Assembly (NCBI GenBank): GCA_015178975.1
Contig: WHVD01000027.1
Coordinates: forward strand, 62,001 to 126,000
Source: Hysterangium stoloniferum
Lineage: Eukaryota > Basidiomycota > Agaricomycetes > Hysterangiales > Hysterangiaceae
Reading direction: 5' to 3'
DNA length: 64,000 bases
The position numbers and the translations under genes are program-made. Shown one piece after another: positions 2,265-63,735 of the stretch. The stretch's first letter is position 1, and every line of letters begins with the position of its first letter. The notes under the pieces are model-generated. The model had not been told where the DNA came from. It worked only from the letters and a program-made list of their open reading frames with translations, and searched no databases.

Positions 2265-3394
2265 TGTGAGGAGTATGCTTTTACCATGGTCTCACTGCAG
2301 TAAAATACTTCTTTCATTTCATTTATATTTTACATATTTTATTCATATTTGTTAAGAACTAAAAACTGACTAATGTCAGTGGCCGACGGGGACCGATCAG
2401 AAGGACTTGGCTTCAGCTTATGTGCTGCGCCCTCACAAATATCCGTAGGGTGTCCTTAGATTTCGGACTGGCGTAGACTGATCCTAAAGAGTTCCTTTCA
2501 GGGAGATACCGATCGGGACCGAAGGACAAGTCGAGTGTCGGGCCAGGGGTCGGGGCCGAGAGTGGACGAGCACACGCGAAGGTGGATGGGGGGATTCTTA
2601 GTATGAGACTGTTACAGATGTATGAGGGTATTCTGAGTCGATATTCTGATTGCCTAGTAACTACAACTACAGTGGGTTCATATACAAGTAACAGGTGTCT
2701 AGAAAATACTAATGGGGAGAAGGGCGGAAAATGGCATTAACAATAAGCTTGACTAGGAACGGGAAGTTTATGATTAGTTCGGAGGCCAATGATAACCAAG
2801 AGCGAAATTACGATAAAAGGAAATAGTTCGAGGACTACAAATATAGATAGGCATATGTGAAACATAGAGTGGAACGGATCAACATAATGAAAGGGACGTA
2901 TCAAAGCATAACCAGACAGAAAGGCGTAGTTGGATTTGATTGACCGGAAGGCATACGTCAGTGTCGGGGGACCGACGGCCTCCGAGATATCGTCTTGATT
3001 GAAGAAGGATAACTACGACGATATACCATCGGGTACCGTCGGTGTGTGAAGGGTTGCGACACAGTCGTAACAATATTTTCCTATCCTTTACATTCTTCGA
3101 CTATTACACCATTTTATTAGTTCCAAGCCCTGTGCATACTTGTGGGTGCACTCAGTGCCAAAGAAGGACAGACACACTTTTACCCAAGCACCACCACTCG
3201 TAAGACATAAATTAGGTCTACAGCAAGCAGTGATCAGGGTAACGTATCAGCTACCATATAGGTAGCATTATCTGAGCTATCTAACACTTCTGGCCTTGAA
3301 CTGTATCAGTCAGGGCCTCACTAAAATCATTCTTCCTCTCCTTCTACTCATTTCTTCGTATATAGAACGGTCAGAACTTCCACCACTCTTCACA
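2265..3394 (-). mobile_element. Solo LTR, family D, copy 1, interrupted by a younger solo LTR
   Basis: The element begins TGTGAGGAGTATGC, ends CCACTCTTCACA, and is flanked by exact 5-bp duplications CAGGG (2260-2264 and 3395-3399). Its ends form an imperfect inverted repeat with TG...CA termini. Removing the nested insert at 2350-3072 and its TSD leaves about 402 bp. The reverse complement matches the second copy at 8717-14033. A TATA-like TTCTATATACG lies near its start. No internal region accompanies it, so it is a solo LTR. Confidence 0.85.
2350..3072 (-). mobile_element. Solo LTR, family C (Gypsy-type), nested in family D LTR
   Basis: It starts TGTTAAGAACT and ends GTCGTAACA, with exact 5-bp TSDs ATATT at 2345-2349 and 3073-3077, and is 723 bp long. 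In its own orientation (minus) it starts TGTTACGAC with an immediate palindromic partner GTCGTAAC and ends CTTAACA. It carries the conserved box at 2403-2434. Close relatives are at 24641, 27152 and 27959. It inserted after the family D LTR did. Confidence 0.9.
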
Positions 3395-4031
3395 CAGGGC
3401 TACATGCTTTATCATTTTGAATTGGTTCTTGTATAGAAGGATATCTGAAAACTATTAAGTATACCAAATTCTAATATACTCTAAAGGTCATTTAAACATC
3501 TGGGATGTGATTCAAACATAATTTGGTTTTTAAAACTTTCAAAAAGTTTTAAACTCTCTCGTACATTACAAACTAAAGAATCTTTTCGGACACGAGTAGA
3601 CAATAAAAAAAATTAGTAGTTTGAAACACTAATACTTTTAAAAAATAGATACCTTTAGATAGTCCATTCCATGCATATGTATATCATTGGCACCTCTAAA
3701 TACATATGTATTACTTCAGAATGGATCTGTCAATCTGAACAGATTGCTACTTGATTCAACATACCCAGAATATATAGGGGGTTTTACTTAATAAAGACAG
3801 CTGTGGTATGAAAAATTTCCAATAATATTTTACATATTTTACATGGAAATAACTACATTACAACTTTTAAAAAACAAAGTACTAATAAAAGTATTAGTAG
3901 GCATCTGTAAAAGGAAGGAAATTATATACAATGGGTTCTATTAATTGACTCTGAATTGTTTAGGATGTAATATGGAGAATTGTTTCTTATGGTTGGTGGT
4001 TAACAATATAATAGTCTCAGAGGATATATCA
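3395..4031. other. No gene seen; AT-rich filler between transposon remnants
   Basis: The sequence is AT-rich and CpG-poor with no recognisable coding frame. It lies between the family D LTR and the Helitron-like remnant, and may include degraded downstream Helitron coding sequence. Confidence 0.4.
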
Positions 4032-4496
4032 CTATTTAAAGATGGAGTTTTGTAGAAATATAAATTTTACCAGTAAACATCTGATATTATAATAATTATG
4101 GACAACCTCCCTATTTGAGAGACACTCATCCATCCAGTGTAAAGCTCCACAGTCTGAACACTGTATATCCATATGTCCTAAATTATGTCTTGGAAACCTG
4201 TCCACCACCACAGGTTGCCGTCCAATGGGTAATTGTAGAATGAGAAGTGGAGGTGGAGGCATGGCTGCAGGCTGTGGAATGGCTGGAGGTGGGGGCATGG
4301 CAGGAGGTGGAATGACTGGAGGTGGGAGCATGGCAGGAGGTGGAATCCATTGTAGCTGTGGTTGTGCAGCTGCATTTGCTGCTGGCTGTGGAATAGCTGG
4401 TGGTGGTGGCATGGCATGGCAGGAGGTGGAACCCATTGTAGCCATGGTTGTACAGCTGCATTTGCTGCTGGCTGACCATGCTGAATAGGTGGTCCT

Positions 4497-4790
4497 GGTT
4501 GCAGAGATGGATAGTGGTGGTGCTGTGGTGGTGCCAATTGCAATATAGGTACCTGTGGGGCCACATGCCTAGGTGGATGGTGGTGCTGTGGTGGTGCCAA
4601 TTGCAAATTAGACACTTGTAGGGCTGCATGCCTAGGTGGATGGTGGTGCTGTGGTGGTTCCCATTGTAAATTAGGCACCTGTGGAGCTACATGGCTAGGT
4701 GGATGGTGGTGCTGTGGTACCCATTGTAAATTAGGCACTTGTGGAGCTACATGGCTAGGTGGATGGTGGTGCTGTGGTGGTGCCAATTGT
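4497..4790. repeat. Tandem repeat of about 60-66 bp, roughly five copies
   Basis: Units contain GGTGGATGGTGGTGCTGTGG followed by a CCAATTG or CCATTGT spacer. On the minus strand each unit encodes a block with PPQHHHPP followed by a NLQ-like segment. The repeat keeps an open frame, which suggests it expanded while the frame was still coding. Confidence 0.85.
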
Positions 4791-4869
4791 AAAATGGATG
4801 CCTCTGGTTGCACAGCTATATTTACATTTGTATGTGCCTGTGGTTGTTGAAGTATATTTGCATTTACAT

Positions 4870-5240
4870 GTGTATGCCAAGAAGGTTGCAAGGCTGCTTG
4901 TAGAGCTTCAGCCTGAGAACGCATGGCAGCCACTGCAGCAGAGCCAAGTGGGGGTAGCACAGCTTGATTTGCAGGTGCATGTGGATTCTGTGGAGGAGGC
5001 TGCAATGGTGGCAGAGGTGCATACTGAGGTGCAGGAGGCAATAGTTGTTGAGTTATATTTGTATTTACACATTTACAGCAAGAAGGTTGCAAGGCTCCTT
5101 GTAGAGCTTCAGCCTGAGCACACATGGCAGCCACTGCAACAGAGCCAAGTGGGGTGGCATAGCTTGATTTGCAGGTACATGTGGATTCTGTGGAGGAGGC
5201 TGCAATGGTGGTGGAGGTGCATACTGGGATGCAGGAGGAT
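4870..5240. repeat. Two-copy direct duplication, unit about 200 bp
   Basis: The segment from AAGAAGGTTGCAAGGCTGC (about 4880) is repeated almost exactly from AAGAAGGTTGCAAGGCTCC (about 5081), including AGAGCTTCAGCCTGA and TGGATTCTGTGGAGGAGGC. It duplicates part of the same Pro-rich coding stretch. Confidence 0.85.
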
Positions 5241-5619
5241 GTCTACCATGGTGGTGGGGCATTACTGCAGGATGCCCAGGAACCAAAAATGGATCATCAT
5301 GAGATGGGCCTGCAACTGCTGGAGGATGTAGGAATGGTTGGGGAGGTGGTGGGAAATCATGTAACTGATTCTGCATATCAGAATGTTCACGGTGGATAGT
5401 TGGAGAGGTCATTTGCAAACACTGCCTACGTTCTTCATCTTGCTCCTGCTGATGATGACACTCAGGTGTTTGAGGAGGGTCCATAATAGATGGTTCAGCT
5501 AATTTGGGAGAGTAGACAGCTGGGGCAGAGGGAATGTGAAAAGCAAATGAGTCTATAAAAAAGAAGGTCCCAAAAGGCATTAACAATTGACAGCAGCATA
5601 AGCCAATGGCACAACCCAC

Positions 5620-7567: not shown

Positions 7568-8449
7568 TGTTACGACCGGACAATCCCGCCAGACTCCGGG
7601 CACTAACCTGTACGCCCCCATGCGCTACAAGCACCAATCATCTGTCTATAGGATTTCCCGCCCAGACTCCGTTATGTCAAGACTCGTTACGTTTGACCTC
7701 ATTACGACACATATCAGTCACCGGACTTCCCCCGGACTCCGTCTCTGTCTATGTCCATCTTCGTCCCACGCATCAGTCACCGGTCCCCACTTAGAATCCC
7801 GTTACCGCTCTAATCGAGCCCCGTTCCCATTTTAGTCAAATGACCTGTCACGATTTAGGACTCCGCTCCTGCTCCGTTTCCCGTTATGGGTTATGCTTTG
7901 TCACGATTCGGACTCCGCTCCGTTCCGTTCCGTTTCTAACACCAATTTGGTGTTTACTATTCCCGTTTCATGTTTTGTTAGTTTCGTTTCGCCATTACTG
8001 GATTTGGTATGTCATTCACTCCATGGTCTATATAAACTGGCAGATGTTGTACATACAATCCAGTCAGAAAATTAGCTTAGATTCCCCCCAGTAATCTAAT
8101 AATATTTTCCGCTCTAAAACCTTACTCAATTCACATCGCTCGCACTAGTCGGAGCCCACGGGCTCCGGCGCATCTATCTCTCTCAACCAACTCGACTCAC
8201 GACTCACGACCCACGACCCTCGACTTACGACCTACGACCCACGACCCTCGACTTATGACCTATGACCCACGACCCTCGACTTACGACCTACGACCCACAA
8301 ACCCCGCCTGGACTCCCCGGGATCCCCGTCCGTCCATTTGAAATTGGACAACACGATCTAGCGAGGGTGCAGCCTATAAGCTGAAGCCAAGTCCTACCGG
8401 ATATCCTGCGGGTTTCTCCGGAAACCCGGCCTGTGTGTGTATCCTAACA
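7568..8449 (+). mobile_element. Solo LTR, family A (Gypsy-type)
   Basis: The element is 882 bp, starts TGTTACGACCGG and ends ATCCTAACA, with exact 5-bp TSDs CTCAT at 7563-7567 and 8450-8454. Promoter-like TCTATATAAACTGG lies near 8028-8041. A tandem repeat follows, then the conserved box at 8363-8394, then the end. The second copy at 29429-31715 aligns along its length, and 18293-19243 is a diverged relative. CpG is well preserved, which points to a fairly young insertion. Confidence 0.9.
8196..8303. repeat. Tandem repeat of about 32 bp inside LTR A
   Basis: About three units built from CGACCCACGACCCTCGACTT plus ACGACCTA lie between the promoter-like sequence and the conserved box. The copy at 29429-31715 lacks most of this array. 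Confidence 0.75.
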
Positions 8450-8937: not shown

Positions 8938-9280
8938 TGTAACAAATACGCTCAGTTGACACGAAGTAGTGACTCGACTATATTTACTACCTGTAACAAA
9001 TACACTATGTTACATTAGGTAAGAAAAATGTGAAACGACAATAAGTAGTGATAACATACCTCAGTCGACACGAAGTAGTGACTCGACTGAGGTATGAGTC
9101 TTGAGTGTCTGGGATTAAATAGTACGTGATAATATTGCGTAGAAACGATGGTAGTAAGACCGTATATTGGGCAGGAACGATGCAGCTTTGTGTATCCGTG
9201 TACGGTGTGGTATAACTGGGTACGGTGTGGCGTAGCCATCTGGGCTTGGTAATGCGGAGTGCGTGAGCCTAAATTCAACA
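8938..9280 (-). repeat. 3' LTR of the Copia element
   Basis: The LTR is 343 bp and on the plus strand runs from TGTAACAAATACGCTC to AAATTCAACA. The adjacent purine-rich tract, read on the minus strand as CCAGGGAGGG at the LTR border, fits a polypurine tract. Confidence 0.9.
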
Positions 9281-12200
9281 CCCTCCCTGGCTCGACGCAC
9301 TCTCACAGAGTCACAACGCTATGCATTGTTTGTGAAAAATAGTTTTAGCCAACAGTTTTGTGAACATGTCGGCTAGATTATCAGTGGATGCAATTCAGCG
9401 TACTTCAATGTCCCCCTCCTCGACCCGCTCCCGTATGTAGTGATATCATATATCAATGTGTTTAACACGTGCATTATTCTTAGTGTTCTTGGTTAGAAGG
9501 ACCGCTCCCGAGTTATCGTTGTACAATATAGCTGGCTTCGCCTGCGGGAATCCGACTTCATCCATCGCTGCGTACATCCACAAGAGCTGTTTCATACCTC
9601 ATGTGAGTGCCATGTATTCTGATTCTGTTGTGGATAACGCTACTGTCAGCTGGTATTTTGCTCCCCAAGTGGTTGGTCCACCCACCTGAATAAAAACATA
9701 CCCGGAACAGGATCGACGTGTGTCGGTGTCGCCTGCATAGTCAGCGTCAACGTACCCAACTGGCGTGATATCCTTATGCGAACCCCCATAGGTAATGCTG
9801 TAGTGGAGTGTCCCCTTAATGTAACGTAGAACGTGCATCAAAGCATTCCAGTGAGCTCTTCCTGGGTTTGAGGTGAACCTACTGAGTGTGGAGACCGCGT
9901 ATGAGAGATCCAGGCGTGTCGCAATCTGTGTGTACATAATAGACCCCAACAACTCACGGTATGGCTTATCCGCAATGAAGATGTGGTCCTCCACTGTCTG
10001 AGGCACCTGCTCCTTGTTCAGTGTGATGCCTGGTGGTAGTGGTGTGGTGTGGGGGTTTGATTCTGTCATGCCAAAACATTCGAGAATACGTTCAAGGTAT
10101 GCATGTTGTGATATTCTAATCGTTCCTTGCTCCCTATCTCTGTCAATTCGTATTCCTAGGACTAAGTTGGCGTCCCCAAGATCCTTTGTCTCGTAAGTCC
10201 ATCCTAGCTCTTCCTTGGCCCATTTTTCTTCTTCTACAGATGATGAAATTCCGGTTGTGTCATCAGTGTAAGTACTCGTTATAGTTGTGTTGCCATTCGC
10301 GTGTTGGGATCGTACGGAAGGATCAGCCTTTGACCGGTAATATCCTAGTTCACCCATTTCTCTGTCCAGTGTCCCCCACCAGTTGTTAGCACCATCCATT
10401 GTGCCGTATAACGTCCTTTCTAGTCGTCCTACCTTTCCGGCCTCCTTTGCTCTATCAGGTAATTCTATGTATGTTATGGCTTGTGGGACGGAATTGAGGT
10501 ATGCTGTAACATAATCAACTTGCTATGCCTCTATGTTAGTGGTAGTAGTAATAGCTAGGTTCATCCGTAGTGACTCATAGCGTATAACTGAAGCGTATGT
10601 TTTGAAGAAGTCGACGCCGGGAATTTGTGTGAAGCCTTTCACTACGAGTCGTGCCTTGCGTGAAGTGAGTTCACCATTGCCATTGTATTTGTTTGCGAAG
10701 GTCCAGCGAGTCTTTACCAGTCTGGCATCTGTAGGGCAATCCATTACCATCCAGACCCCATGTTTCCTCTTTACAGCAAGTTCCTTGTTGATTGGGCCCT
10801 CCCATATATCGGGACGTGTCATCGCCTCGCTGTATGTATTGGGGAGCCACATGTTCGTCGGATCTGGCATTGTTTTCGCATCAGTGTGAAAAGCACTATG
10901 CGTTCTGTCATCTTCCCACGCTTCCCCTGCCGCCTGTGCATTTTGGATTTCGTTCTCTGAATTAATAGAGTCTTTGAGTGCCTGTGTTGGTACAGGGACA
11001 CGCAGTGAGCGACGTGGTGCAGGTTCAGTGATGGTTGGTTCTGAAGCAGGCTGGAGCGAGATGTTGTTTGGAAGGGTATGGTCGTGCGTGGGTGCTAACC
11101 CCCTGTAAATCTTGTCTGGATTCTTGCTAACTGGTGTGTCAAGGATCACATGGTCAGTATGGTGCATTTCCCCCTCACCCAAAGACTCAGTCAGTGTCTT
11201 ATAACTATGTAGAGGTCGCAGGTGAGAAATATCGGGCTTTTTGCCATACCACAGTTCGAATGGTGTCGCATCTGGGTTTCTAGTGGTGGGAATAAAATCC
11301 ATCACGTATGCAACCGCCACTGCAATTTCACACCACAATGTTGGGGGTAAGTTGTTTTCGTATAGACAGATGCAGACACATTTGATAATGGTGCGATGAC
11401 ACCGCTCGACAACACCATTGGATGACGATGAATATGCAGTTGTGCTTTCATGTACTATACCCTGTTCACTGAGGTATGCGGTCCATGAAGAGTTGACGAA
11501 TTCTGTGCCTCCATCTGTGCATATAGTGCACACCTTCATTCCTGTCTGTCGTTTGGTGAGTGCTGTATAGTGTTTCAGTGCCGACAAGGTTGTCTCAGCC
11601 TCTTTATTCAACATGAAGAATACCTCCTGGTGGCCACTATACCCGTCAACACATGGCATCATATAACTCCTACCACTGATGGACTGTACTCATGACGGCC
11701 CCCACAAATCAACATAGGTGCATTCTCCAGTTGTTGTCTCACATTCGTCATTAATATAGAATGGACGGCGTGTGTGCTTCCCCATTATACAGCTTTCACA
11801 TGTCCCTGGCTGGTGTCAGGGTGGTAACCTGCATTCCACAAACGACATTACACTTAGACATTTGTTGGACAGTGTCGTACCGGATGTGGCCAAGATGTCG
11901 GTGCCATGTATCTATGTCAGTTGGTCGATCATGGGACTTGGCAGCGAGTGCATTTGTGTATGCATTGATTACAGTTGTTGGATCTACGGTTGGATCCGGT
12001 TGTGAGTGGACGCTGTCCGGGAGAGGACCGGTTGGTGGGAAGAGGTCAATCTTGTACATTGTTCCTTCTCCCCTTCCATACATGTATGGGCAGCCATCAG
12101 GGTTGGTGAATGTGACTCCTCCTCCCCCAAAAGTCGCATAACAGCCGCTGCTGTCAAGCTTCCCAATCGAAATGAGATTATGAGACAGTGTTGGACAATA

Positions 12201-13442
12201 AAGTGCATCTCGGAAAGCAAGGTTGATAACTCGTCCACCATACATGCAACGCTTGTTGACTGTCCCCTTCCCATAAATTGAGAAGGTGCTACCACTGTTG
12301 GCCATGGATCCATCCTTTCCTTCACAAGGTGTGTAAGTCTGAAAATCATTTATGTTGGTAAAGAAGTGATCGCTTGCCGCAGAGTCGGCATAGGTGACAA
12401 TGGCTGATGCCGGTGAGTCTGCCTGTGTCATCATGGCGCAAAGTTCCCCAGACCCAGGTGTGAAGGGGCTTGAGGGGACTATCGCCATATTTGCTGTTGA
12501 TTTTGGAGGTACGTCAGTCGGCGATTTTTGCTGCTGGGTGCCTTGGTTCCCACTAGTCGCAGTCCCCTTTTTCCTCCACCAATCTGGAAACTGACCTTCC
12601 ATTCCCCCCCCAACCTTGAAGCACTTCTCGATCGTGTGTCCTATGCATTTGCAGTTGGGGTTGGAGCAGACATAGGTCTGAGGGGTCTGTTTCCTGTGTC
12701 GTGCGAGAGTTGTGTCATATAGGGTGAGATTCACGATTACTTCTTTTGAAGTTTTTAGTGAGAAGAGGGTACCGATTACTAAGTCCCACTCCTTAGGCAT
12801 TGATGCAATCACAATTGTGCAGAAAATACAGTCATCCATTTGTCCCCCTTGAGCATTGACCTTTGCCCATCCCTCACGCAACCGTGAAAAATGGGATATA
12901 ATGTCTGTGCCATCAATATGCTTAATAGCACGAAGATTGTTGTTGGCATTGAGCAGGCCTATGTCGGAAGATGTGCTGTGGACCTCCTTTAGAGCAGACC
13001 ATGCTTTGCCTGCAGTATCTGTGGATTGGATCCCATGCCCGACTGGGTTTTTTACGTTCAGGTCAATCATTGATTTTGCATATGCATTGCGCTGTTCCCA
13101 TTCCTCAGGTGAGGGGTTTCTTGATCCCCAGTAACTCGTTGGTGTGGGTATGGAATTAGGTGTGAGTGGAGAAGGCTTCTGAATGGTCCCATCCAGATAC
13201 CCTTGGACGCCTCGTGCACCTGCAGTTGACCAAATAGTATTATGCCATGTAAGCCAGTTGTGTCCTTCAAAACAGTCCTCAGATTGCAGCATGAATAGGG
13301 CTGGCTGGTTAGACATGTTTGATGGGGGTTTGGTCAGTTGGGGTCGGTCAGTTGGGATCAGTCAGTTGGGGTCAGGTTTGATTATTCGGGGTCAGGTTTG
13401 AAGTCAGTTCAGCCAATCAGTGGTAGTGTTTTTAACAGCTTT

Positions 13443-13459
13443 GGACGGGGCCCATAACC
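13443..13459 (-). other. Primer-binding site matching the initiator tRNA-Met anticodon arm
   Basis: Directly inside the 5' LTR the minus strand reads GGTTATGGGCCCCGTCC. The GGTTATGGGCCC part is complementary to the anticodon arm of eukaryotic initiator tRNA-Met (GGGCCCATAACC). Copia elements are known to prime from a half-tRNA at this site rather than from the tRNA 3' end. Confidence 0.75.
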
Positions 13460-13832
13460 TGTAACAAATACACTCAGTCGACACAAAGTAGTGACTCGAC
13501 TATATTTACTACCTGTAACAAATACGCTATGTTACATTAGGTAAGAAAAATGTGAAACGACAATAAGTAGTGATAACATACCTCGGTCGACACGAAGTAG
13601 TGATAACATACCTCAGTCGACACGAAGTAGTGACTCGACTGAGGTATGAGTCTTGAGTGTCTGGGATTAAATAGTACGTGATTATATTGCATAGAAACAA
13701 TGGTAGTAAGACCGTATATTGGGCAGGAACGATGTGGCTTCGTGTATCCGTGTACGGTGTGGTATAACCGGGTACGGTGTGGCGTAGCCGTCTGGGCTTG
13801 GTAATGCGGAGTGCGTGAGCCTAAATTCAACA
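13460..13832 (-). repeat. 5' LTR of the Copia element
   Basis: The LTR is 373 bp, matching the copy at 8938-9280 apart from scattered transitions and one additional copy of a roughly 30-bp internal unit (GTCGACACGAAGTAGTGA...). Confidence 0.9.
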
Positions 13833-18292: not shown

Positions 18293-19243
18293 TGTTATGA
18301 CCCAGAAAACCTGCTGGACTCCGGACTCCACCCTATATACACCTGACACTCTGTATCTCACAGACCAGTCACCGGACTCCAACCAGACTTCCAGAACCCC
18401 TCTAACAGAGCATAGAACCCTGCTCCCATTATGGTCCCATGACCTGTCATGATTGTCTGTGTCTCATGCACCAGTCCTTGGACTCTGCCAGACCTGCAAA
18501 TCAACCTGTTTATACCTGACTCTCTGTGCTGTCACCGGACTCTGACCAGACTCCCAGAACCCCTCTAACAGAGCATAGAACCCTGCTCCCATTATGGTCT
18601 AATGACCTGTCATGTTTTGGACCCCACTCCCATTCTGTTCCATCCCTAATACCTAGTTTGGTATTTACTTGTTTCGTTTTATGTTTAATAGTTCTGCCCC
18701 TCATTAATACCAGATTTGGTATTATTACATTTCACAGTCTATATAAGTCTCCTATATTCATGTACTTAGAATCCAGTTTGAATCTCGAACAAGTTACACC
18801 CTTGAACTAGTTACACCCTTAAACAAGTTACACCCTTGAACTAGTTACACCCTTGAACTACTTACACCCTTGAACTAGTTACACCCTGAATATGTCCTGA
18901 TCCAGTCTCTAGTCCTCTTGCTGCATGCTCAATTCCCGGAACTCCCACAGGAACTCTGGAATCTACATCTTCCTGTATGCATTCTGTCAGCTCAAAATTT
19001 GGACACCCGAATGAGTGTATGAGGGTGCAGCACATAAGCTGAAGCCAAGTCCATCTCAGTGCCAGTTACCTTCTGGTAATTATTCTGATACACTGCCTTG
19101 TACTACTAATCCCTGATAACTCCCTGGACTTATTACCCGGGGACTCTGTGGGACATTTTCCTGGACTAAGTGTGTTTGGAATAATTACCAGAAACACTCG
19201 GTGGGACTTCCTCAGAACTTATCCCTTGTGTTCAGAACTTAAC
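18293..19243 (+). mobile_element. Diverged LTR, family A-like
   Basis: It starts TGTTATGACCC and ends CAGAACTTAACA. A promoter-like CAGTCTATATAAGTC lies near 18738 and the conserved box at 19021-19052. No matching TSD was found (CCTTC on the left, TTGTG on the right), so an end may have been lost or it may belong to a rearranged element. Two internal segments (about 18364-18459 and 18529-18619) are direct copies of the same sequence, so part of the LTR is duplicated. Confidence 0.65.
18790..18890. repeat. Tandem repeat of about 17 bp inside the family A-like LTR
   Basis: About six units of GTTACACCCTTGAACTA lie between the promoter-like sequence and the conserved box. This is the same relative place where other LTRs here carry different arrays. 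Confidence 0.85.
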
Positions 19244-19267
19244 ATTGTGAGTCACTGTATGTATAAC

Positions 19268-20389
19268 TGTTATTTGTCACCTCACTTAGTATACTATAGT
19301 TACATTGTAGTTCTAGTTTGATCCCTACCCCTTCCTGCACTTCCTTTGACCCATCACTACTTCTCACCTCATTGATTGGACCCCCACTCATCTGCTATAC
19401 CTTTGTATAAAGTTCCTACCATGTATGCTACTGCTCCTCAGTTCTAATATTGACTTAGATTACCCTCACTTAGTCTTCAGTCCATTTCCTCCCTCCCTAA
19501 TACCCTCTAAGGTGTCATTGGCAAGCCATGACCCTCTACATTATGACTCTTAGCATATAGGCCCACCAGTTGAGTAAGCTAAGTGTTGTCTTTAGTTATT
19601 ATTGTACTATCCACTATGTTTGAAATACTGGAGCACCTTAACAGTTTGTACAAGGATGCAACATATAATTTGAAGTCAAGCTCCACCCATTTTATAGAGT
19701 TAGACCTCCTGACTAGTATGATCTTGTTAAGTGCCATGTCAGGAACTTATTCTGGAACTATCGGAAAGTGACCAGGAACTCGGAAACTTCCAAATGGGTC
19801 AGGATGTCATCTTCAGCTTATGTGCTGTGCCTCCATGCAAATGCTCAAAGTCCTTAATTTCAGAGATGGGAATGTTAAGCCAGAGGATATGGATATTCAG
19901 AGTTCCAAAGAGTTCCAAATATTGAGTGTACAGAGAGAAGGAAGGAATAAGAAACTAAGTCAATATCAGATCTAATGTAAAGTAAAAATTCATGGAAACT
20001 AATATAAGTTTTCTTGTTATTGTACTACAAACTAAGATCACAATAAGACAGAATCAGAAGTATTCCAAAATGGGAATACAGTAAGATGGACTAAGGAAAG
20101 TATTCCAAAATGGGAATGCAATAAGTAAATGAGTGAATACTTGTCAGTTGACAAGTTACCAAATGTGGAACAAAGGTGAGATCTGGAAGTACAGGAACTA
20201 TGAATGTTCTGTAGTTGGAAGTTGGAATCAGATATTGAGGCAGGAAGTCAGATCAGAGACTTGGGGTGGAGGTCGGATGTTTCAGATGATATCAGATATT
20301 GAAGTATCCAGGAATGGGTTGTAACAGATCTCTATCATTGGCCCCCCAACATAGAGCTTCCTTTCAACCCCTTTGCTTAGATCTTAACA
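19268..20389 (+). mobile_element. LTR, family B, interrupted by a younger solo LTR
   Basis: It starts TGTTATTTGTCACCTCA and ends GCTTAGATCTTAACA, matching 25768-26507 over its length and 63500-63735 in part. The conserved box is at 19652-19684 in a decayed form. An insertion at 19725-20326 with TSD GATCT splits it. Its own flanking bases (ATAAC and GTATA) do not match, so it may be one LTR of a rearranged element rather than a clean solo LTR. Confidence 0.75.
19725..20326 (-). mobile_element. Solo LTR, family C-like, nested in LTR B
   Basis: It starts TGTTAAGTGCC and ends GGTTGTAACA, is 602 bp long, and has exact TSDs GATCT at 19720-19724 and 20327-20331. The conserved box, on the minus strand, is at 19808-19833. 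It is shorter and CpG-poorer than other C copies, so it is probably an older subfamily. Confidence 0.88.
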
Positions 20390-20470
20390 GTATATTAGAA
20401 CTCAAGCTTGTAAACTGTTATCCTTTAATCGTGGCCTTCCTGTTAGATTACAGGATAGGGTGAAATATAT

Positions 20471-20550
20471 TGACCTGAGCTGGAATTGAACCAGTGACCA
20501 CTATGTCTGGATTACATGTCTAGTGCTCTTAACCCCTGAGCTATCAGGCC
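20471..20550 (-). ncRNA. tRNA-Thr(UGU)-derived sequence (SINE head or tRNA pseudogene)
   Basis: The minus strand folds as a tRNA. The acceptor arm GGCCTGA pairs with TCAGGTC, with one G-U pair and a discriminator A. The D arm is GCTC-AGGGGTTAA-GAGC and the anticodon arm CTAGA-CATGTAA-TCCAG reads anticodon TGT. TAGCTCAGGGG is a good A box and GGTTCAATTCC a perfect B box, so RNA polymerase III could start here. Against a working tRNA: the variable loop has about 11 nt instead of 5, position 33 is A instead of T, and one anticodon-stem pair is broken. It lies in transposon sequence between an LTR end and a Gypsy internal region, so a tRNA-derived SINE is likely. Confidence 0.6.
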
Positions 20551-20639
20551 ATTAAGAGTAGTCCTATTAAGAACCAGTCACTTCTGATATGGTTAGTCAT
20601 CAGTAAGATATTAATTTATCCAAGGTCAGCCATTGCTCA

Positions 20640-23600
20640 TTCAACACTTCCAGCTCAATGTGTCCACTCTTTCAAACCCCAATTCACTCTTTGTCCCCTT
20701 GACCTAGTACTCACCCCTTCAAAGTTTAGAGCCTTGGTGGACTCTAGCTCTACCCACTGTTTCATAGACACTTATTTCCTCGAGGAAGTCCAGAATGGCA
20801 CATGGAACACTGTTGATTGACTGGGTATTGGGTAATCTTACATACTTTCTGGGCACCTGATGGTCAAATTCTGGCTTCTTCAGTCTCAGCCAGGGCAGTG
20901 GCAGCTCCACTGGCCAATCCCTCCATGACAGACCCATCCATCTCTTTAGTTAATACTGACACATTTTTATGTGCCAGTAAGATGGATGGATCCCAAATGT
21001 TTTCATTAAATGTTTCTCAGCTTGGTGCCTCCACACACACAACTACCCTTTCAAAGGCTGCTGTTGACCTTGACAGTGTCTTGGAGAAGTATCATGACTT
21101 TGTGGACATCTTCAGCAAATGGCATGCTGAGACTTTAGCCCTCCACAGAACCTATGATCTCAAAATTGATCTTGAGGATGGTGTGGACCCTCCTCTTGTA
21201 CACATATACTCCCAGCACTGGTTTCCCTTAGAGAATTTATAGACAAACACCTTTGTATTGGCTTTATACAGCCCTCCATGTCATCCTACAGCACCCTGAT
21301 TCTTTTCATCAGAAAGATGGCTCATTGCACCTTTGCATAGATTTTAGAGGACTCAACAAAGTCACAAAAAAAGATAGGTACCCTCTTCCACTCATCACAG
21401 ACCTTTTAGATTCCCCTTAGAGAACCTGCATTTATACCAAGATTTATTTGTGACATACCTATCATTTGGTGCAGATTGGTGCAGGTGATGAATGAAAAAC
21501 AGCATTCCAAACATGCTATGGTTCTTTTGAATGGCTGGTTATGCTGTTTGGACTCACCAATGCTCCGGCAGCTTTCCACCACTTTATGAACAATATCCTC
21601 AGTGATCTACTTGATGTTTGTGTTATCATATACCTCAATGACATTCTCATTTATTTGGAAGACCCAATGCTACATAATGAGCATGTTCATGAAGTGTTTT
21701 GAAGACTCTGAAAGCCGGGCTTTTTGTTCAAGGTGATAAATGCTCTTTTGATGTTGATTGTATCAAATATCTAGGTTACATAATGGGACCCAATGGACTA
21801 ACAATAGATGAAGACAAAATCTGGACTATCTGCAAATGGCCAGAACCCTGCAAAGTGAAAGACATTCAGTCTTTCCTTGGATTCGCCAACTTCTACTACC
21901 ATTACATTTACAACTATTCAGACATCATGGTTCCCCTCACCCACCTTACTTGTAAGGAGGCCCCATGGAATTTCACATCCCAATGCAGGACAGCATTTCA
22001 ACAACTCAAAGACATTTTCATATTGGCACTCATATACAGTAGTACTTACACACTGGCAACCAGACTGCCAAATAATTGTTGAAACCAATGCATCTGATTA
22101 TACCCTAGCTGCAATTCTTTCCATTATTACACTTGATGGAGAAATTCATCCAGTTGCCTTGCTTTCCAGAACATTTACCTCTACAGAACTCAATTATGAT
22201 AAAGAACTCCTTGCCATTTTTGAGGTGTTCAAGGCCTGGCATCATTACCTCAATGGTTCAGGAACCCTGATTGATGTTGTCACTGACCACAAGAATTTAG
22301 AATACTTTGCCACCACTAAGCTTCTGACCTGCTGGCAAGCCCAATGGTCAGAATACCTCTCCCATTTCAACCTTGTAATTTGTTTTTTGACCTAGCTGCC
22401 TGGGCAGCAAACTGGATGCCATGACTAGATGATGGGACATCTACCTTAAAGAGGGGACCAACAACTATGCAACAGTTAACCTGCATAATCTGAAGCCTAT
22501 CTTCATCTCTACTCAAATCATGGCATCCCTTCATGCCACTTCTCTAGTCTTACCTGTATTTCATGGCATCACCATTATGGATGTTACCAAACTCCACATG
22601 GACATCCTTTCAGACCTCCAAAACAACCCAATTACTAGTACCTATCTCAACAATCCAAATGACCTGTCAGCCCCCCAATGGACTCAAGACTCAAGTGGTT
22701 TTATCCACCTTGATGGCAGAATCTACATCCCCAACTGTGGAACACTTCATTTGCCTGTCTTTCAGCATGCCATGACCACCCAATATCCGCCATTATGGAT
22801 CTAACAAAACCCTCCATTGTGAATACACCTGGCTAGCCCTCCACACACTTTTAAAATGCTATTGCAAGTCTTGCACCACCTGTATGTGATCCAAAGCCCA
22901 GAGACACAAACCATATGGTCTACTAAAGCAACTCCTGATCCCCATGGAACTCAATTTCCATGAACTTCATTGAGCTCCTTCCCACCTCACAATCCTTCAC
23001 CTCCATCCTAGTTGTTGTTGTCAGATTCACCAAACAGAGTATTTTTATACCTACACATGATACAATTACCTCCCAAGAACTTGCAAAACTGTTTGTCATC
23101 CATGTTTTCTCAAAACATGGCATCCCGACACACATTACATCAGATCAGGGTTCTGAATTCATCTCCCACTTCTTCAGGTCACTTGGTACTGCCCTCAATA
23201 TAAAACTACACTTCACTTTGAGACACCATTGAGAAAGCAACAGACAGACTGAGTGAGCCAATCAAACATTGGAACAATATCTTTGTATCTATGTATTGCA
23301 ATTGCCAACAGGACAATTGGTCAGACCTCCTACCTCTCACTGAATTTGCCTATAATAACACCCCAAATGCTACTACCAGTGTTTCCCCTTTCTTCATGAA
23401 CAAAGGATTGTAATCCAAACATTTTGGTCTACCCAGAATGAGATTTGGCCTCTGCTCACACCCAGGAATTTGTCACTAATCTAGACAAACTTCATCATAC
23501 CCTTCAGCAGTCCATACTCAACACTCAAGCATATACCCAGAAATGGTGGACTGCTGATGTCTACTGGCACCCGACTTCAAAATCAGTGACCAAGTGTTTG

Positions 23601-24127
23601 TCAAAGCTGAGTTCTTTCAGACCACCTTGCCACACCAAAAAACTTGCTGAAAATTATCCCAGCCCATATGAGATTATTGTACAAGCTGGCATACGTTCAT
23701 TTACCCTTCAGCTCCTTGATACCATGCATACAGCATACCTGGTTTTCCATACTTCAGTCCTGGAACTGGCCACACTGAATACCATCCCTGAATGCATCCA
23801 ACCTCCCCTCCACCTATCTTCATCAATGGAGAATCCAGATTTGAGATTGAAGCCATTCTAGACTCAAAAATTGATCACAGAAGACATGATTGCAAACTAC
23901 TCTACCTAGTCCAGTGGTCTGGTTATGAAGGGATAGATGAAGAAACATCTTGGATCCTAGCTACCAAACTTGGAAATGCACCCAAAGTTGTTTTAGATTT
24001 TCACACTGTGAATCCCAGCAAGCCAGGACCCCTTTCTACTCTCTAACCAGCCCTGTCTCTTAGTATTCATACAAACCTTCTATGTCATTCTAGGAAGGTC
24101 TCATAGGGTCTCAACTTAATGGGGGAA
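20640..24127 (+). mobile_element. Ty3/Gypsy chromovirus internal region (fossil, heavily broken)
   Basis: The plus strand shows the pol order of a chromodomain Gypsy element. A pre-RT linker lies at about 20.9-21.2 kb and reverse transcriptase at about 21.3-22.0 kb (with KYLGYIMG and IQSFLGFANFYY). RNase H is at about 22.1-22.4 kb (ETNASDYTLAA), the integrase zinc region and core at about 22.7-23.3 kb (HGIPTHITSDQGSEF), and a C-terminal chromodomain at about 23.8-24.0 kb (YLVQWSGYEG). Chromodomains in this group steer integration to heterochromatin. The coding region carries many breaks. Gag, protease and the 5' LTR were not found. A purine-rich tract AATGGGGGAA precedes the 3' LTR. CpG is almost absent, so the copy is old. 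Confidence 0.9.
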
Positions 24128-24608: not shown

Positions 24609-24640
24609 GGGAATACTGTGAAGACACCAGTCATTCAGCC

Positions 24641-25593
24641 TGTTACGACTGTGTCGTAACCCATGTCACAACCCAATGGTCTCCAAGAATACTACAGTCT
24701 ATCGATGTTCCAAGTTATTGATCAAGTCATCATTTCGGCAACCTTCGGAATACCGACACTGACGTATACCTTCACGGTGATCAAACCTTGTTTATGCCCC
24801 TGTCAAAATATACTCGTACCATCTGGTTATGCTTTGATACGTCCCCTTTCATTATGATGATCCATTTTACTCTATGTTTCACATATGCCCATATATACTT
24901 GTAGCCTGTGGACTATTCCCTTTTCTTGTAATCCCGCTCTCGGCTAAATCTCGGCTTCCGATCTTATCGTAACTTTCCGGTTTCTAGTCAAGTCTATTCG
25001 TCAAATAGTGTTTCCGCTCTTTCCTTAGTTAGTAGTTTCTAGACGCCAATAACTCATATATAAACCCACTGTAAATGTAGTTATTGGACAATCAGAATAT
25101 CAACTTAGATCAACTTAGATCAACTTAGATACCCCTCTACTTTTCGACTCCATTATCTATTCACGACCACCACATTCCAACTCCATCCGATTTACGATTC
25201 AACCTACATTTACGACTTCAACCTCTAATCTCCGACTCTCTCAGTCTCCGACTCTCTCAGTCTCCGACTCTCTCAGTCTCCGACTCTCTCAGTCTCTGAC
25301 TCTCTCAGTCTCCAACTCTCTCAGTCTCCAACTCTCTGTCTCCAACTCTCTGTCTCTGACTCTCAGTCCCCAACTCTCTCAGTCTCCGACCCCTCAGCCC
25401 AACCCTTGACTTATCCTTCAGTTTCCGATCGGTAGTTTACTGAGAGGTTTACTTGACAGGACTAGTTTTCGCCCACCCGAAATTTAAGGACACCTGACGG
25501 TAACTTGTGAGGGCGCAGCACATAAGCTGAAGCCAAGTCCTTCCGTTCGGTCCCTGTCGGCCAGCCGACATCCGTCAGTTTCTGCTCTTAACA
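24641..25593 (+). mobile_element. Solo LTR, family C
   Basis: It starts TGTTACGACTGTGTCGTAAC, a terminal palindrome, and ends CTGCTCTTAACA, with exact TSDs CAGCC at 24636-24640 and 25594-25598. At 953 bp it is longer than its relatives because of the array at 25228-25390. A promoter-like CATATATAAACCCAC lies near 25050 and the conserved box at 25509-25540. It landed just behind the family E LTR. Confidence 0.92.
25228..25390. repeat. Tandem repeat of about 14 bp inside LTR C
   Basis: About eleven units of TCCGACTCTCTCAG, with small variants such as TCCAACTCTC, form a C/T-rich array between the promoter and the conserved box. Other C copies lack the expansion. Confidence 0.9.
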
Positions 25594-25767
25594 CAGCCCC
25601 CACAAGCTCATTCTACCCCTCATCACTCTATGGCATCTCACTATCAGTACCCCCAACCATAGTGTCACCACCTATGGTGCCCTGACACTTGTATCAATAT
25701 AGGTTTCCCCTTTCAACATCTTGTTCTATCTCCATTCCAACGCTCTCCCACCCATCCTACATATAAA

Positions 25768-26507
25768 TGTTATTTGCCACCTCATACTCACTTGGTATAC
25801 TATAGTTACATTGTACTTAGTTCTAGTTTGATCTCTACCCCTTCCTGCACTTTCTTTGACCCATTACTACTTCTCACCTCATTGATTGGACCCCTTGTTG
25901 ACTTTTCTGGGATTTGGGTTAGCAAGGGATTACGAGCATTAGGGCTTGGGTCACTGTGGTTGGGAATTCACTGCGTATTTTGGGTTATATAAGGTCTATT
26001 TGTATTTGTTTAGTCCTTATCCATTTACAATGATACTGCCACCTCACTTAGACAAATGGAAAGTTATACAGTCTAGGAACAGCACCACGAAAAACTTAAC
26101 ACCCTGCTCATCCAGTATAGCTTTGTATAAAGTTCCTACCATGTATGCTACTGCTCCTCAGTTCTAATATTGACTTAGAGTACTTCCACTTAGTCTTCAG
26201 TCCATTTACTCCCTCCCTAATACCCTCTAAGGTGTCGTCAGCAAGCCATGACCTCTATATTACAACTTTTAGCATATCAGCCCCTGTTGAGTAAGCTAAG
26301 TGTTGTCTTTAGTTATTATTGTACTATGTATCTGCTCTGTTTGAAATACTGGAGCACCTTAACAGTTTGTATGAGGGCACAACATATACATAAGTTGAAG
26401 CCAAGCTCCACCTGTTTTATAGAGTTGGACCTCCCAAGTAGTACAATCTCTATTGTTGGCCTCCCAACATAGAGCCTCCTTTCAACCCCTTTGCTTAGAT
26501 CTTAACA
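25768..26507 (+). mobile_element. LTR, family B, with a 206-bp insertion
   Basis: It starts TGTTATTTGCCACCTCA and ends GCTTAGATCTTAACA. It matches the copy at 19268-20389 except for the stretch at 25896-26101, which is absent there. The conserved box (26373-26409) has the CAAC...GTTG form. Flanks ATAAA and GTCTT do not match. Confidence 0.75.
25896..26101. mobile_element. 206-bp insertion with TG...CA ends in LTR B
   Basis: Comparison with the uninterrupted LTR B at 19268 delimits an insert that starts TGTTGACTTTTCTGGG and ends AAAACTTAACA. CCCT stands on both sides, which would be a 4-bp duplication. It has a promoter-like GGGTTATATAAGG. A very small solo LTR is the simplest reading. Confidence 0.55.
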
Positions 26508-26910
26508 GTCTTGCTCTTCCATCACTTTTCATAATTCCATTTTCAGAACTCCACCATGTTTCTCCATTCTAGTTTAGTATAAAGTCTCTACTTGTATTCT
26601 ACTATTCGCTAGTTTGAATATTGACTTAGGTACTTCCTGTTCTGTTTTAATGTCTCATACTCTAATCATCATCAACCTTAGACTCTGGTCCTCCAGTTAT
26701 CAGCCAAGTGTTGATTACTCTGTATGATTGTACTTCTCATTTGTTTTTGAAACACTGAAGCACCCAGACACTTCATGTGAGGGTGTAACACATACATATA
26801 TTGAAGCCAAGCTCCACTTACTTTGTAGAATGAGACCCCCAGTTAAGTATATATATATACACACAGGCCTCCAGTCTTCCACCTTCCCCCTTATTCCTGA
26901 CACCTTAACA
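26508..26910 (+). mobile_element. Truncated LTR, family B-like
   Basis: GTATAAAGTCTCTACTTG, a TTGAATATTGACTTAGG stretch and a conserved box at 26779-26815 follow the LTR B order, and the segment ends ACACCTTAACA. Its 5' end is missing or too diverged to see. It directly follows another LTR B. Confidence 0.55.
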
Positions 26911-27151: not shown

Positions 27152-27870
27152 TGTTAAGAACTGGAAACTGACTAATGTTGGTGGACCGACAGGGACCGAT
27201 CAGAAGGACTTGGCTTCAGCTTATGTGCTGTGCCCTCGCAGTTGTCCGTCAGGCATCCTTAAATTTCGGGCGGGCGAAGACTTGTCCCAACGAGTACCTC
27301 TCGGTGAAACTACCGATCAGAACCGAGGGATGAGTCGAGTGTTGGGCCAAGGGGTCAGGCACCAAAGGGGGGCGAGCGCACGCGAAGGCGGAAGACGGAA
27401 TTCTTAGTATGAGACTTCTGGAGGCGTAAGAGGGTATTCTGAGTCGATATTCTGATTGCCTAGTAACTACAACTACAGCGGGTTCATATACAAGTAACAG
27501 GCATCTAGAAAATACTAACGGGGAGAAGGGTGGAAAATGGTATTAACAATAAGCTTGACTAGGAACAGGAAGTTTATGATTAGTTTGGAGGCCGATGATA
27601 ACCGAGAGCGGAATTACGGTAAAAGAAAATAGTTCGAGGACTACAAATATAGATAGACATATGTGAAACATAGGATAGAGCGGATCATCATAATAAAGGG
27701 GACGTATCAGAGTTTAACCAGATAGTTCGAGTATGTTTTGACGTGGGCATAAATGGGGTTTGATCACCACGAAAGCATACGTCAGCTTCAGGAGGCCGAT
27801 GGTTTCCGATGTGGTAACTTGAAATTGTCGATAGGTGGGGGACCAATAGGGTTGTGACACGGTCGTAACA
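27152..27870 (-). mobile_element. Solo LTR, family C
   Basis: It starts TGTTAAGAACTGG and ends ACGGTCGTAACA, 719 bp, with exact TSDs TGAGG at 27147-27151 and 27871-27875. The conserved box, on the minus strand, is at 27206-27238. Its right-hand half is closely similar to the copy at 27959. Confidence 0.92.
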
Positions 27871-27958: not shown

Positions 27959-28694
27959 TGTTAAGAACTGAAAACTAACTAAAGCCGGTTGGCTGACAGG
28001 GACCGATCGGAAGGACTTGGCTTCAGCTTATGTGCTGTGCCCCCGCAAATATCCGTTGAGTGTCCTTAAATTTCGGATGGGTGAAGACTAATCCTAACGA
28101 GTTCCTTTCTAATACCGATCAGGACCAAAGGTTAAGTTGAGTGTCAGGCCATGGGGTCAGGGACCGAGAGTGAGCGAGCACACACGAAGGTGGAAGACGG
28201 AATTCTTAGTATGAGACTTCTGGAGGCGTAAGAGGGTATTCTGAGTCGATATTCTGATTGCCTAGTAACTACAGCTACAGCGGGTTCATATACAAGTAAC
28301 AGGCATCTAGAAAATACTAACTGGGAGAAGAGCGGAACACGGTATTGACAAATAAACTTGACTAGGACCGGGAGGTTACTATTAGTTTGGAGGCCGTGAA
28401 ATAATCAAGAGCGGAATTACGAAGAAAGGAAATAGTTAGAGGGTTACAAATATATATAGACATATGTGAAATATAGGATAGAGCAGATCATCATAATAAA
28501 AGGGATGTATCAGAGTTTAACCAGATAGTTCAAGTATATTTTGACGTGGGCGTAAATGGAGTTTGATCACCGCGAAAGTGTACATCAGCATCAGGGGCCG
28601 ATGGTTTCCAATGTGATGACTTGAATGGTAACTTGAATCGTCAATAGGTGGTGATAACCTCGGGAACCGATAGGGCTGCGACACAGTCGTAACA
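27959..28694 (-). mobile_element. Solo LTR, family C, nested in a Tc1-like element
   Basis: It starts TGTTAAGAACTG and ends CAGTCGTAACA, 736 bp, with near-exact TSDs GGTAC (27954-27958) and GGTAG (28695-28699). The conserved box is at 28013-28045. One TSD base has changed since insertion. Confidence 0.88.
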
Positions 28695-31162: not shown

Positions 31163-31715
31163 GTATTTTGTCTGGTGGGAGTTATTACTTAGATATGTGT
31201 CTCATCAGGTGGGAGTGTTAGATTTAGTGACTTGGCACAGTAGTTACAAGTTGTGTACCATTGTGGGTCCATAGTGTGCGCTGGTGAATTTGCATTCACT
31301 CGTTCATGTCTGTGTCTGTGTCTGAGCTCTCACACTTCTTGTGTTTCACATCCACCTCCCTTCTTCATTCTAACAGTTGTACATACAATCCAGTCAGAAA
31401 ATCAGCTTAGATTCTCCCCAGTAATCTTAGTATATTTTCTGCTCTAAATTCCTCTTTGAATCACACCGCTCTTACTAGTTAGAGCCCATGGGCTCTGATG
31501 CATCTATCACTCGACCTCCGACTTATCTATCTCAATTCCCCAACCTCTCGACCCACAAACCCCACCTGGACTCCCTGGGATTCCCATCCACCTGTTTGAA
31601 ATTGGACAAGATGATCTCATGAGGGTGCAGCCTATAAACTGAAGCCAAGTCCTACTGGCTTTCCCCCAGGTTTCTCCAGAAACCCTCCAATAAGCTCCGT
31701 GTATGCAACTTAACA

Positions 31716-57869: not shown

Positions 57870-58062
57870 CAATCCCGCCATAGCAGCGCAACCCAACTAT
57901 ACCAACAGATATGCAGTTAAATATATCCTTGTTACTCCATGAATAGTGTATGAACAGGGAGTAATAATTTATCCTCCCTCTTTCTTGAATACTAGCGTCT
58001 GATCACATGCTATAATGTATCGCCTTGATTTGTATACCCATAATGAATGAATGAATAGTGGT

Positions 58063-62323: not shown

Positions 62324-63036
62324 ACACATCTTCTAATTCCGAAAGATTTTATCAGCTACTTTTATGACAAAATTATTGTGGCGTCCCGACGGGATAGCGG
62401 CGAATTGAAATATGAACGATCCTAACAGCACCGAAAATAGCTAACGAATATGTAATGACGTGTATACATATGTTCTGTTGTAACTGCCTTCCATAGAGGG
62501 AACACTACATGTTACATCGGCACTATCTATGTACCCCGTATAGCCATCTTCAAATGGTGTATTTCAGACCGTCACCTCTTGTTTCAGTTAGAAAAGATAT
62601 TTTGGTGTCTAAAAACAACCGGGCAGTATTCGAGGGAGTTGTTAGTAGTAAGTATCGATATACTTCGACGGCGCGCGTGAGATTATGCAGGAAATAACCA
62701 CACATTTTCAACAAACGGAACATGTACATTAATTTGTATACAGTGGATTTTCGAGGGGAGAGAAACTAAATTTTCATATAATCTCTTCTGTACCATTTAA
62801 AGTGCTTAAATGTACTAAAGATGTAAAGAAAGGAGGAAGCATCAAGTATACCATGTGCTAACATAACAGTATGACCGCAAGGAGCACAACAAAACCGCAT
62901 GCGTCCCTTACAGCTGTTTCGGGTACATAGTTTGAAAATAAAGAAATTCCGCTTTGGATCTCAAAAGTAATTGCCATGTAACTCCATAACAGGAGGGAAA
63001 TAAGATATGAAACTTTGATTTAATATATTTATACAG
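62324..63036. other. Intergenic region, no gene seen
   Basis: No coding motif is recognised. CpG-containing host-like sequence continues to about 62.7 kb and then becomes AT-rich toward the next transposon remnants. Confidence 0.4.
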
Positions 63037-63100
63037 TGACCTGCAAAACCGTTGCAATGTTTTGCAACTTTTCAGACACTGGCAAATAGAACTAGCAGAA
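63037..63100. repeat. Tc1/mariner-type terminal sequence (single end)
   Basis: TACAGTGACCTGCAAAACCG, followed by TTGCAATG, closely follows the terminal pattern of the MITE-like elements here (CAGTGA...CAAAAC...TTCCAATG). It is followed by a small inverted pair GTTGCAA/TTGCAAC. No partner end was found. Confidence 0.5.
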
Positions 63101-63149
63101 AAATAGGCAAAATTAAGATAAATTAGTGTGTGATAGAGTACTATATGGA

Positions 63150-63450
63150 TGATTCATTCTGATATCATATTATCATCATAGATAAGTGATATATAGTATA
63201 AAAGGGCAATGATAGGAGTGAGGGAAGTCAGTGTATTATAATCTGTATTCTTAATATTGTATTATTATTTCGACTTCTATTCATAATATCTTCAACTTAA
63301 TTTCTGGTGTGCTTCTGTGTCCTATCTTTGCCTCACACTTTATCAACAGGATGAATTAATACCTCATTGAACAAGGCATCTGTACTCAATATTGTTGAAT
63401 ATTCTTTGATTGTTTATTCAATTTTATTGAGTAAAATTCAATTCCTGTCA
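63150..63450 (+). mobile_element. LTR fragment, family E-like
   Basis: TATAAAAGGGCAATGATAGG, CACTTTATCAACAGG and the ending AATTCCTGTCA follow the order of the LTR at 24128-24608, second half. The 5' part is missing. Confidence 0.55.
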
Positions 63451-63499
63451 GACCCTCTATCTCTCAACTCTTAGTAATTCCACCCTCTGGTTGATTAAC

Positions 63500-63735
63500 C
63501 TCAGTGTTGACTCTTGCTCATATTGTACTATCTGCTCTGTTTGAAATACTGGAGCACCCTGACAGTTTGTGTGAGGGTGCAACACATAAGTTGAAGCCAA
63601 GCTCCACTACAGTTATAGAGTCAGACCTCCCAACTAGTATGATCTCTATTGTCAGCCCCCCAATTAACTCATTTCCTATCATTGGCCCTCTGACTAGAGC
63701 ATTCCCCCTCTTCCCAGCTTAGATCTTAATAAAGT
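63500..63735 (+). mobile_element. LTR fragment, family B (3' part)
   Basis: CTGCTCTGTTTGAAATACTG, the conserved box at 63572-63604 in its CAAC...GTTG form, and CAGCTTAGATCTTAA near the end match LTR B copies at 19268 and 25768. The 5' part is missing. Confidence 0.65.

What the first reader, a model, noticed from the sequence alone, without database searches (positions are those of the whole stretch)
2403..63604. One short box shared by three unrelated LTR families, with a covarying hairpin
Seen directly: a box of about 30 nt, GAGGG(T/C)GCA(G/A)C followed by the core CATAAGCTGAAGCCAAG, occurs at 2403, 8363, 19021, 19652, 19808, 25509, 26373, 26779, 27206, 28013, 31621 and 63572. Always it lies inside an LTR and mostly 50-140 bp before its 3' end. 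Families A, B and C otherwise share little beyond their ends. Families A and C can pair CAGC with GCTG around a 6-nt loop (ACATAA or CTATAA). In family B both sides changed together to CAAC and GTTG, so one pair went from G-C to A-T. Inference: selection on an RNA structure in the R/U5 part, perhaps for 3'-end formation, packaging or priming. A recombined shared module is the alternative.
Basis: partly seen in the sequence, partly recalled or inferred. Interest (0 to 1): 0.72.

Follow-up and report, generated by a model that had tools for sequence, protein, structure and literature searches.

The report
Conserved RNA clamp in self-priming retrotransposons
A short box repeated thousands of times in this fungus-like genome looks like part of a folded RNA beside the spot where certain jumping genes start copying themselves, apparently using their own RNA end instead of a tRNA.

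Summary
The box is real and very common: 6,405 copies against 2 for the reversed pattern. It is the core of a 49-61-nt module in LTRs of several Ty3/gypsy families that look self-primed: the PBS complements 11 nt of the presumed RNA 5' end, as in Tf1/sushi elements (at least 10 of 11 in 35 of 50 junctions). Of 937 LTR-PBS junctions found with one pattern, 771 have exact GAAGCCAAG 45-75 nt before TAACA at the LTR end. LTRs of different families are alike almost only around the module.

An outer stem encloses the box (AAGGAC/GTCCTT, TGGAGC/GCTCCA, ATGGAC/GTCCAT). The variable segment before AGGG is complementary to sequence just after the PBS (own -11.6 kcal/mol; 0 of 5,000 permutations as low). 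I read this as a variant of the Tf1 'pretzel' priming structure.

Against: no stem pair is significant in my R-scape-like test; family specificity is clear for B and C only; the other PBS-flanking duplex is unsupported. Conservation is shown; function is inferred.

The parts
2350..3072 (-). Family A LTR; module (outer arm to outer arm) 2401-2457; self-primer-like AATCAGAATAT
8346..8394 (+). Family C module: outer stem GGAC 8346-8349 / GTCC 8391-8394; inner stem CAGC 8370-8373 / GCTG 8380-8383
19000..19053 (+). Family D module: TGGAC 19000-19004 / GTCCA 19049-19053; LTR end at 19244
19440..19450 (+). Family B self-primer AGTTCTAATAT (presumed RNA 5' end)
   Evidence: exact reverse complement of the PBS at 20392-20402
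19629..19685 (+). Family B module, decayed copy in a 5' LTR; its variable arm is complementary to about 20406-20423 (-15.3 kcal/mol)
19808..19838 (-). Truncated box (stops after GCTGAAG)
20392..20402 (+). Family B PBS ATATTAGAACT, 2 nt after the LTR end (20389)
20406..20423 (+). Post-PBS arm complementary to the variable arm of the family B module (ends approximate)
24641..25593 (+). Family A LTR
25486..25542 (+). Family A module: AAGGAC 25486-25491 / GTCCTT 25537-25542; CAGC 25516-25519 / GCTG 25526-25529
26350..26410 (+). Family B module: TGGAGC 26350-26355 / GCTCCA 26405-26410; CAAC 26380-26383 / GTTG 26394-26397 (10-nt loop)
26756..26816 (+). Family B-type module, second decayed copy
27204..27260 (-). 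Family A module
28011..28067 (-). Family A module
31604..31652 (+). Family C module: GGAC 31604-31607 / GTCC 31649-31652
63550..63606 (+). Family B module: TGGAGC 63550-63555 / GCTCCA 63601-63606

Best explanation
The box is the core of a conserved leader-RNA module of self-primed Ty3/gypsy (Tf1/sushi-like) retrotransposons. Shown by sequence: an 11-nt PBS that complements the presumed RNA 5' end; between them a module with an outer stem (P1), an inner hairpin (P3, CARC/GYTG, extendable by GGY/GCC) and near-invariant AGGG and AAGCCAA; and a variable arm inside P1 that is complementary to sequence just after the PBS. Inferred: in the RNA this long-range duplex and P1 form a pseudoknotted clamp that holds the PBS region next to the annealed 5' end, so that RT/RNase H can cut the primer free after nt 11 and start minus-strand DNA, as described for Tf1. 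The near-invariant bases would be contacts for RT, integrase or Gag.
For: 937 LTR-PBS junctions (control 1), 771 with exact GAAGCCAAG at 45-75 nt (control 0). Of 50 fetched junctions, 35 have a match of at least 10 of 11 to their own PBS; own mean 10.0 against 8.4 for PBSs of the other loci; the forms differ between families and change together. In the window's own B element the match is 11 of 11. Integrase piece has Pfam SH3_Tf2-1, E 1.2e-19. P1: 24 of 24 A copies pair at all six positions; matching arms occur 2,507 times (A) and 234 times (B), mixed arms 2 and 0 times; the family assignment of majority arms is the best of 24. Long-range duplex: own -12.8, between-family -8.9, shuffled -7.2 kcal/mol (43 of 50 loci); on 62 of 70 loci own -11.6, permutation mean -9.4, 0 of 5,000 as low. 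Three A sub-lineages with different arms are each complementary (L040 -11.2, L049 -17.2, L093 -16.3). Between-family LTR similarity is almost confined to the module region.
Against: My R-scape-like test finds no significant pair; the best stem pairs have E about 15 and rank 16 and 17 of 1,035. The locus permutation does not correct for relatedness; at family level the true assignment ranks 2 of 120. Specificity is clear for B and C; A and E arms pair about as well with other families' flanks (A with C -12.3 against own -12.7, E with A -12.9; A2 no better with its own flank than with A1's or C's). The variable arm's best partner within 1 kb starts at the PBS flank in only 11 of 43 loci; in the median locus 11 of 250 windows are better. 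Some A copies do not pair (L053, L067, L091, L092). 15 of 50 junctions lack a good self-primer match. C/E copies have a T.T mismatch in P1 (41 of 42), and copies were picked with a 5'-arm landmark, which favours pairing. The second PBS-flanking duplex is not supported (own -3.0, shuffled -3.8). Local folds are not unusually stable and recovered the outer stem in one of four (the A piece was cut inside the 3' arm). No clear junction was seen for family D.
Confidence: 0.66

Rival explanations
1. The module is a packaging or dimerisation signal bound by Gag; the PBS-proximal pairing is incidental or part of one shared leader fold.
For: Leader position and the near-invariant bases would fit a protein- or RNA-binding site. 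Ty1, Ty3 and HIV-1 have such signals in the structured 5' end (PMC11381356, passages seen).
Against: The complementarity found is with the PBS-adjacent segment. The inner loop is no long palindrome (ACATAA none; CTATAA holds only TATA).
Confidence: 0.2
2. The module is conserved only because the copies are recent relatives; there is no selection on an RNA structure.
For: Few independent lineages; covariation not significant; local folding energies ordinary; the A and E arms are not family-specific.
Against: The rest of the LTR is nearly unalignable between families and the protein stretches after the PBS are on average 34-66% identical, yet the core stays nearly identical. Arms of P1 and of the B and C long-range duplex differ together.
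Confidence: 0.08
3. A recombined DNA module (for example a transcription-factor or 3'-end-formation element) spread between unrelated LTRs.
For: Box similarity stops at the outer stem. Two places have an A-type 5' arm with a B-type 3' arm.
Against: Families A, C, E and B share related protein stretches, LTR ends and PBS layout, so descent suffices; a DNA site does not need two complementary arms plus a partner outside the LTR.
Confidence: 0.06

Closest known systems
Tf1/sushi self-primed LTR retrotransposons and their 'pretzel' leader RNA (passages only: PMC10085805; PMC7175516; PMC4600332)
   Same: Ty3/gypsy pol with Tf2-like integrase SH3 domain; 11-nt RNA 5' end complementary to a PBS just after the 5' LTR; [quoted passage not shown]
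   Different: Here the LTR arm is embedded in a near-invariant module shared by families with little other LTR similarity; the other PBS-flanking duplex was not supported. The passages I saw describe the structures and mention no shared sequence box.
Retroviral and Tf1 U5-IR stem-loop (Lin and Levin 1998; only the title seen, in reference lists; paper not held)
   Different: Not compared; the text was not available.
Conserved LTR structure models incl. Sushi (PMC3601003, passages)
   Same: LTR motifs conserved within clades; the passages note that several chromoviruses prime from a 5' hairpin.
   Different: The passages seen describe AATAAA and TATA-like motifs, not a U5 RNA module of this kind.
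Retrozymes (hammerhead ribozymes in LTRs; PMC4918200, search listing and start of abstract only)
   Same: A conserved small RNA motif inside LTRs.
   Different: No Rfam match, hammerhead included; elements here code for Gag and Pol.
Ty3 leader RNA (PMC11381356, passages)
   Same: Gypsy element with a structured 5' end.
   Different: Ty3 uses a tRNA primer; here the primer appears to be the element's own RNA end.

Membership tests
Tf1/sushi group | Ty3/gypsy order protease, RT, RNase H, integrase | tested here: met
   L039 ORF pieces: RVP_2, RVT_1, RT_RNaseH, rve; one family A copy; the window piece 21859-22392 between B-type LTR parts matches RT_RNaseH
Tf1/sushi group | Tf2-like integrase C-terminal SH3 domain | tested here: met
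   PF24626 SH3_Tf2-1, E 1.2e-19, one family A copy
Tf1/sushi group | Chromodomain at the integrase end | tested here: inconclusive
   Piece after an in-frame stop in L039: PF00385 E 7.2e-4, 19.9 bits, below the 25.1 cut-off
Tf1/sushi group | PBS complementary to the first 11 nt of the RNA | tested here: met
   35 of 50 junctions at least 10/11; 11/11 in the window B element. The RNA 5' end itself is inferred, not mapped
[quoted passage not shown]
   Complementarity after the PBS; computational only, clear for B and C, less so for A and E. Which Tf1 duplex it matches could not be checked
Tf1 'pretzel' leader | A second such duplex on the other side of the PBS | tested here: not met
   Only the 20 nt after the self-primer against the LTR end tried: own -3.0, shuffled -3.8 kcal/mol, 35 loci
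Tf1/sushi group | Primer made by RNase H cleavage after nt 11 | not testable with these tools
   Needs biochemistry
Known RNA families and ribozymes (Rfam 15) | Match to a family model | tested here: not met
   Window 25430-25600 (family A module): 0 matches at E up to 10; whole window at gathering score: only a tRNA. Other families' modules at the lax threshold not tried
tRNA-primed elements | PBS complementary to a tRNA 3' end | not tested
   No tRNA set was compared

The most novel reading that the evidence does not exclude
A previously undescribed RNA domain class: a compact pseudoknotted three-helix leader module (P1, P3 and a long-range duplex to the PBS flank, with near-invariant AGGG and AAGCCAA) that is itself recognised by RT or integrase to place the primer cut, with a far more conserved sequence than the pretzel described for Tf1. 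In its boldest form the core would take part in the cleavage itself.
Probability: 0.3. Interest if true: 0.75.

Novelty: new variant of a known kind. Interest (0 to 1): 0.56.

Why it matters
Self-priming has been implicated in elements from fungi to vertebrates (PMC4600332, passage), but the leader structure it needs was worked out in Tf1 (PMC10085805, passage). Here one genome offers several diverged lineages and hundreds of junctions with a leader module, a self-primer and a PBS flank, so the structure can be tested by comparison. The module is also a sequence tag for self-primed elements and for thousands of LTR copies. My paper searches (listings, with passages from a few papers) showed no description of such a box; that covers only the open-licence library.

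Tried and rejected
Known RNA family or ribozyme: Rfam at E up to 10 gave nothing for the family A module region; no novel-ribozyme test was possible. The box letters were searched in papers (nine papers hold one of the 12-mers, none a 17-mer; titles and abstract starts unrelated). A local hairpin made by the variable segment looked possible in single copies but differed between copies; the long-range partner explains it better (judged by eye). Covariation by a home-made R-scape-like null: not significant. Second PBS-flanking duplex: not supported. A guess that B used PBS forms like those of A and C failed (0, 0 and 1 places); reading the window gave the B junction, then (35 places, 20 fetched). 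Outside this genome: IMG/VR 0 hits (which may leave out near records); no fungal collection was available, so host range is unknown. Rows dropped: and one search used 43 of 50 junctions (L051, L055, L057, L074, L079, L080, L083 had no usable box); one search used 62 of 70 (these and L095); of 264 box-like places one search kept 145 unique copies with a 5'-arm landmark, one search kept 94 of them (5 in no family), 70 unique. The 30 junctions fetched (of 937) are the first ones on contig C1, not a random sample; the 20 were chosen by hand from the 100 places listed for differing 3' flanks.
Full report
What is there. The window lies in a 111-Mb assembly of 554 contigs. Its ORFs and gypsy and Copia elements look to me like those of a basidiomycete fungus; that is my reading, no call named the organism. 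Genome-wide the 17-nt core has 3,025 exact copies (control 0) and the wider form 6,405 (control 2).

The module. Lining up the copies in 38 fetched loci and the window shows a unit longer than the box: GAAAT, a 5' arm, usually 14-18 variable nt, AGGGYRCARC, a 6-nt (sometimes 10-nt) loop, GYTGAAGCCAA, and a 3' arm. Family similarity stops at the 3' arm. The arms are complementary: AAGGAC/GTCCTT (A), TGGAGC/GCTCCA (B), ATGGAC/GTCCAT (D), GGAC/GTCC plus one more pair across a T.T mismatch (C/E). In 94 clean copies, chosen with a 5'-arm landmark, all six pairs hold in 24 of 24 A copies; the first four hold in at least 41 of 42 C/E copies and at least 18 of 19 B copies; B's outer two hold in 12 and 13 of 19; D has only 4 copies. 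Genome-wide, matching arms occur 2,507 times (A) and 234 times (B), mixed arms 2 and 0 times. The family assignment of majority arms scores best of 24. The inner stem has one clear change, to CAAC/GTTG in B. Minimum-energy folds of four copies recover the inner stem, with GGY/GCC in C and B and the outer stem in B only, and are not exceptionally stable (the A piece ended inside the 3' arm).

The elements. L039 holds a family A element with LTRs 96.3% identical, a gag ORF, and pol pieces matching RVP_2, RVT_1, RNase H, rve and SH3_Tf2-1; a chromodomain piece is below Pfam's cut-off. After the LTR and a 2-nt spacer comes a PBS that is the reverse complement of 11 nt in the same LTR, often just after a TATA-like sequence. 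In 50 junction loci, 35 have at least 10 of 11 matches and 15 do not; the mean is 10.0 for the own PBS and 8.4 for other loci's PBSs; the A, C, E and B forms differ and PBS and self-primer change together. In the window, AGTTCTAATAT at 19440-19450 matches the PBS at 20392-20402 exactly. [quoted passage not shown]

Link between box and priming. With one junction pattern (A, C and E forms) there are 937 places (control 1), of which 771 have exact GAAGCCAAG 45-75 nt before TAACA. Of the first 30 fetched, 29 have it with up to 2 mismatches. A Copia element in the window has no box in its LTR-like repeats. The variable arm is complementary to the sequence after the PBS: for example AACAGTTT with AAACTGTT in B, GATCT.GCGAG with CTCGCAGAT in C, GACGG..TTGCGAG with CTCGCAA..CCGTC and ACGTGAA..TGTGAG with CTCGCA.TTCACGT in two A sub-lineages. 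Own pairs are stronger than between-family and shuffled pairs; 0 of 5,000 locus permutations reach the observed mean. At family level the true assignment ranks 2 of 120, 0.03 kcal/mol behind the first, which by the printed matrix is the swap of the two A sub-lineages. The specificity comes from B and C; A and E arms fit several flanks, and single A copies (L053, L067, L091, L092) do not pair well.

How it most likely works. The RNA begins with the self-primer. The module, 125-562 nt further on in the 35 good loci and mostly 220-370, keeps its outer and inner stems and uses the variable arm to hold the segment just after the PBS, so that self-primer, PBS and module are brought together. Published passages describe the Tf1 'pretzel' as self-primer:PBS plus two duplexes between PBS-adjacent and LTR sequences (PMC10085805). 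One such duplex is supported here, the other is not. Shown: sequences, positions, complementarity. Inferred: that the RNA folds so, that it is needed for the primer cut, that the near-invariant bases bind a protein.

Limits. Copies are decayed, with CpG depletion (observed/expected 0.56 in loci against 0.95 in window 34,001-62,000), which weakens pairing counts. Lineages are few, and my phylogeny-aware test gave no significant pair. Family D has no clear junction. R and U5 could not be told apart. No other species could be searched apart from IMG/VR (0). Junction loci are not a random sample.

Verdict.

Noticed in passing
L039:6307-7228 (minus strand): Reverse-strand ORFs between pol and the 3' LTR of the family A element; one has a cysteine-rich pattern resembling a fungal Zn2Cys6 cluster (recalled), with no Pfam match at E 0.01. 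An antisense extra gene inside a retrotransposon would be worth a look.
   Followed up: partly
window 8938-13832 (minus strand): Copia element with LTR-like repeats 8938-9280 and 13460-13832 and RVT_2/rve ORF pieces; no box in these repeats.
   Followed up: partly
window 25200-25400; L049; L018; L010: Short tandem repeats (about 15-24 bp units) expanded inside or beside LTRs near the module.
   Followed up: no
loci L001-L039: CpG depletion (0.56) compared with the gene part of the window (0.95), as if repeats were methylated.
   Followed up: no
G000:C97:89693-89753 and C153:92033-92088: Two modules with an A-type 5' arm and a B-type 3' arm, which do not pair fully; possibly another family or recombinants.
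   Followed up: no
window 24126-24640: An LTR-like start (TGTCACAACTGTCAC...) with TATA-like sequence and GTCAGAATAT, possibly a further self-primed family interrupted by the A LTR.
   Followed up: no
window 20470-20551 (minus strand): tRNA-Thr (TGT) about 80 bp after the family B LTR-internal junction.
   Followed up: no
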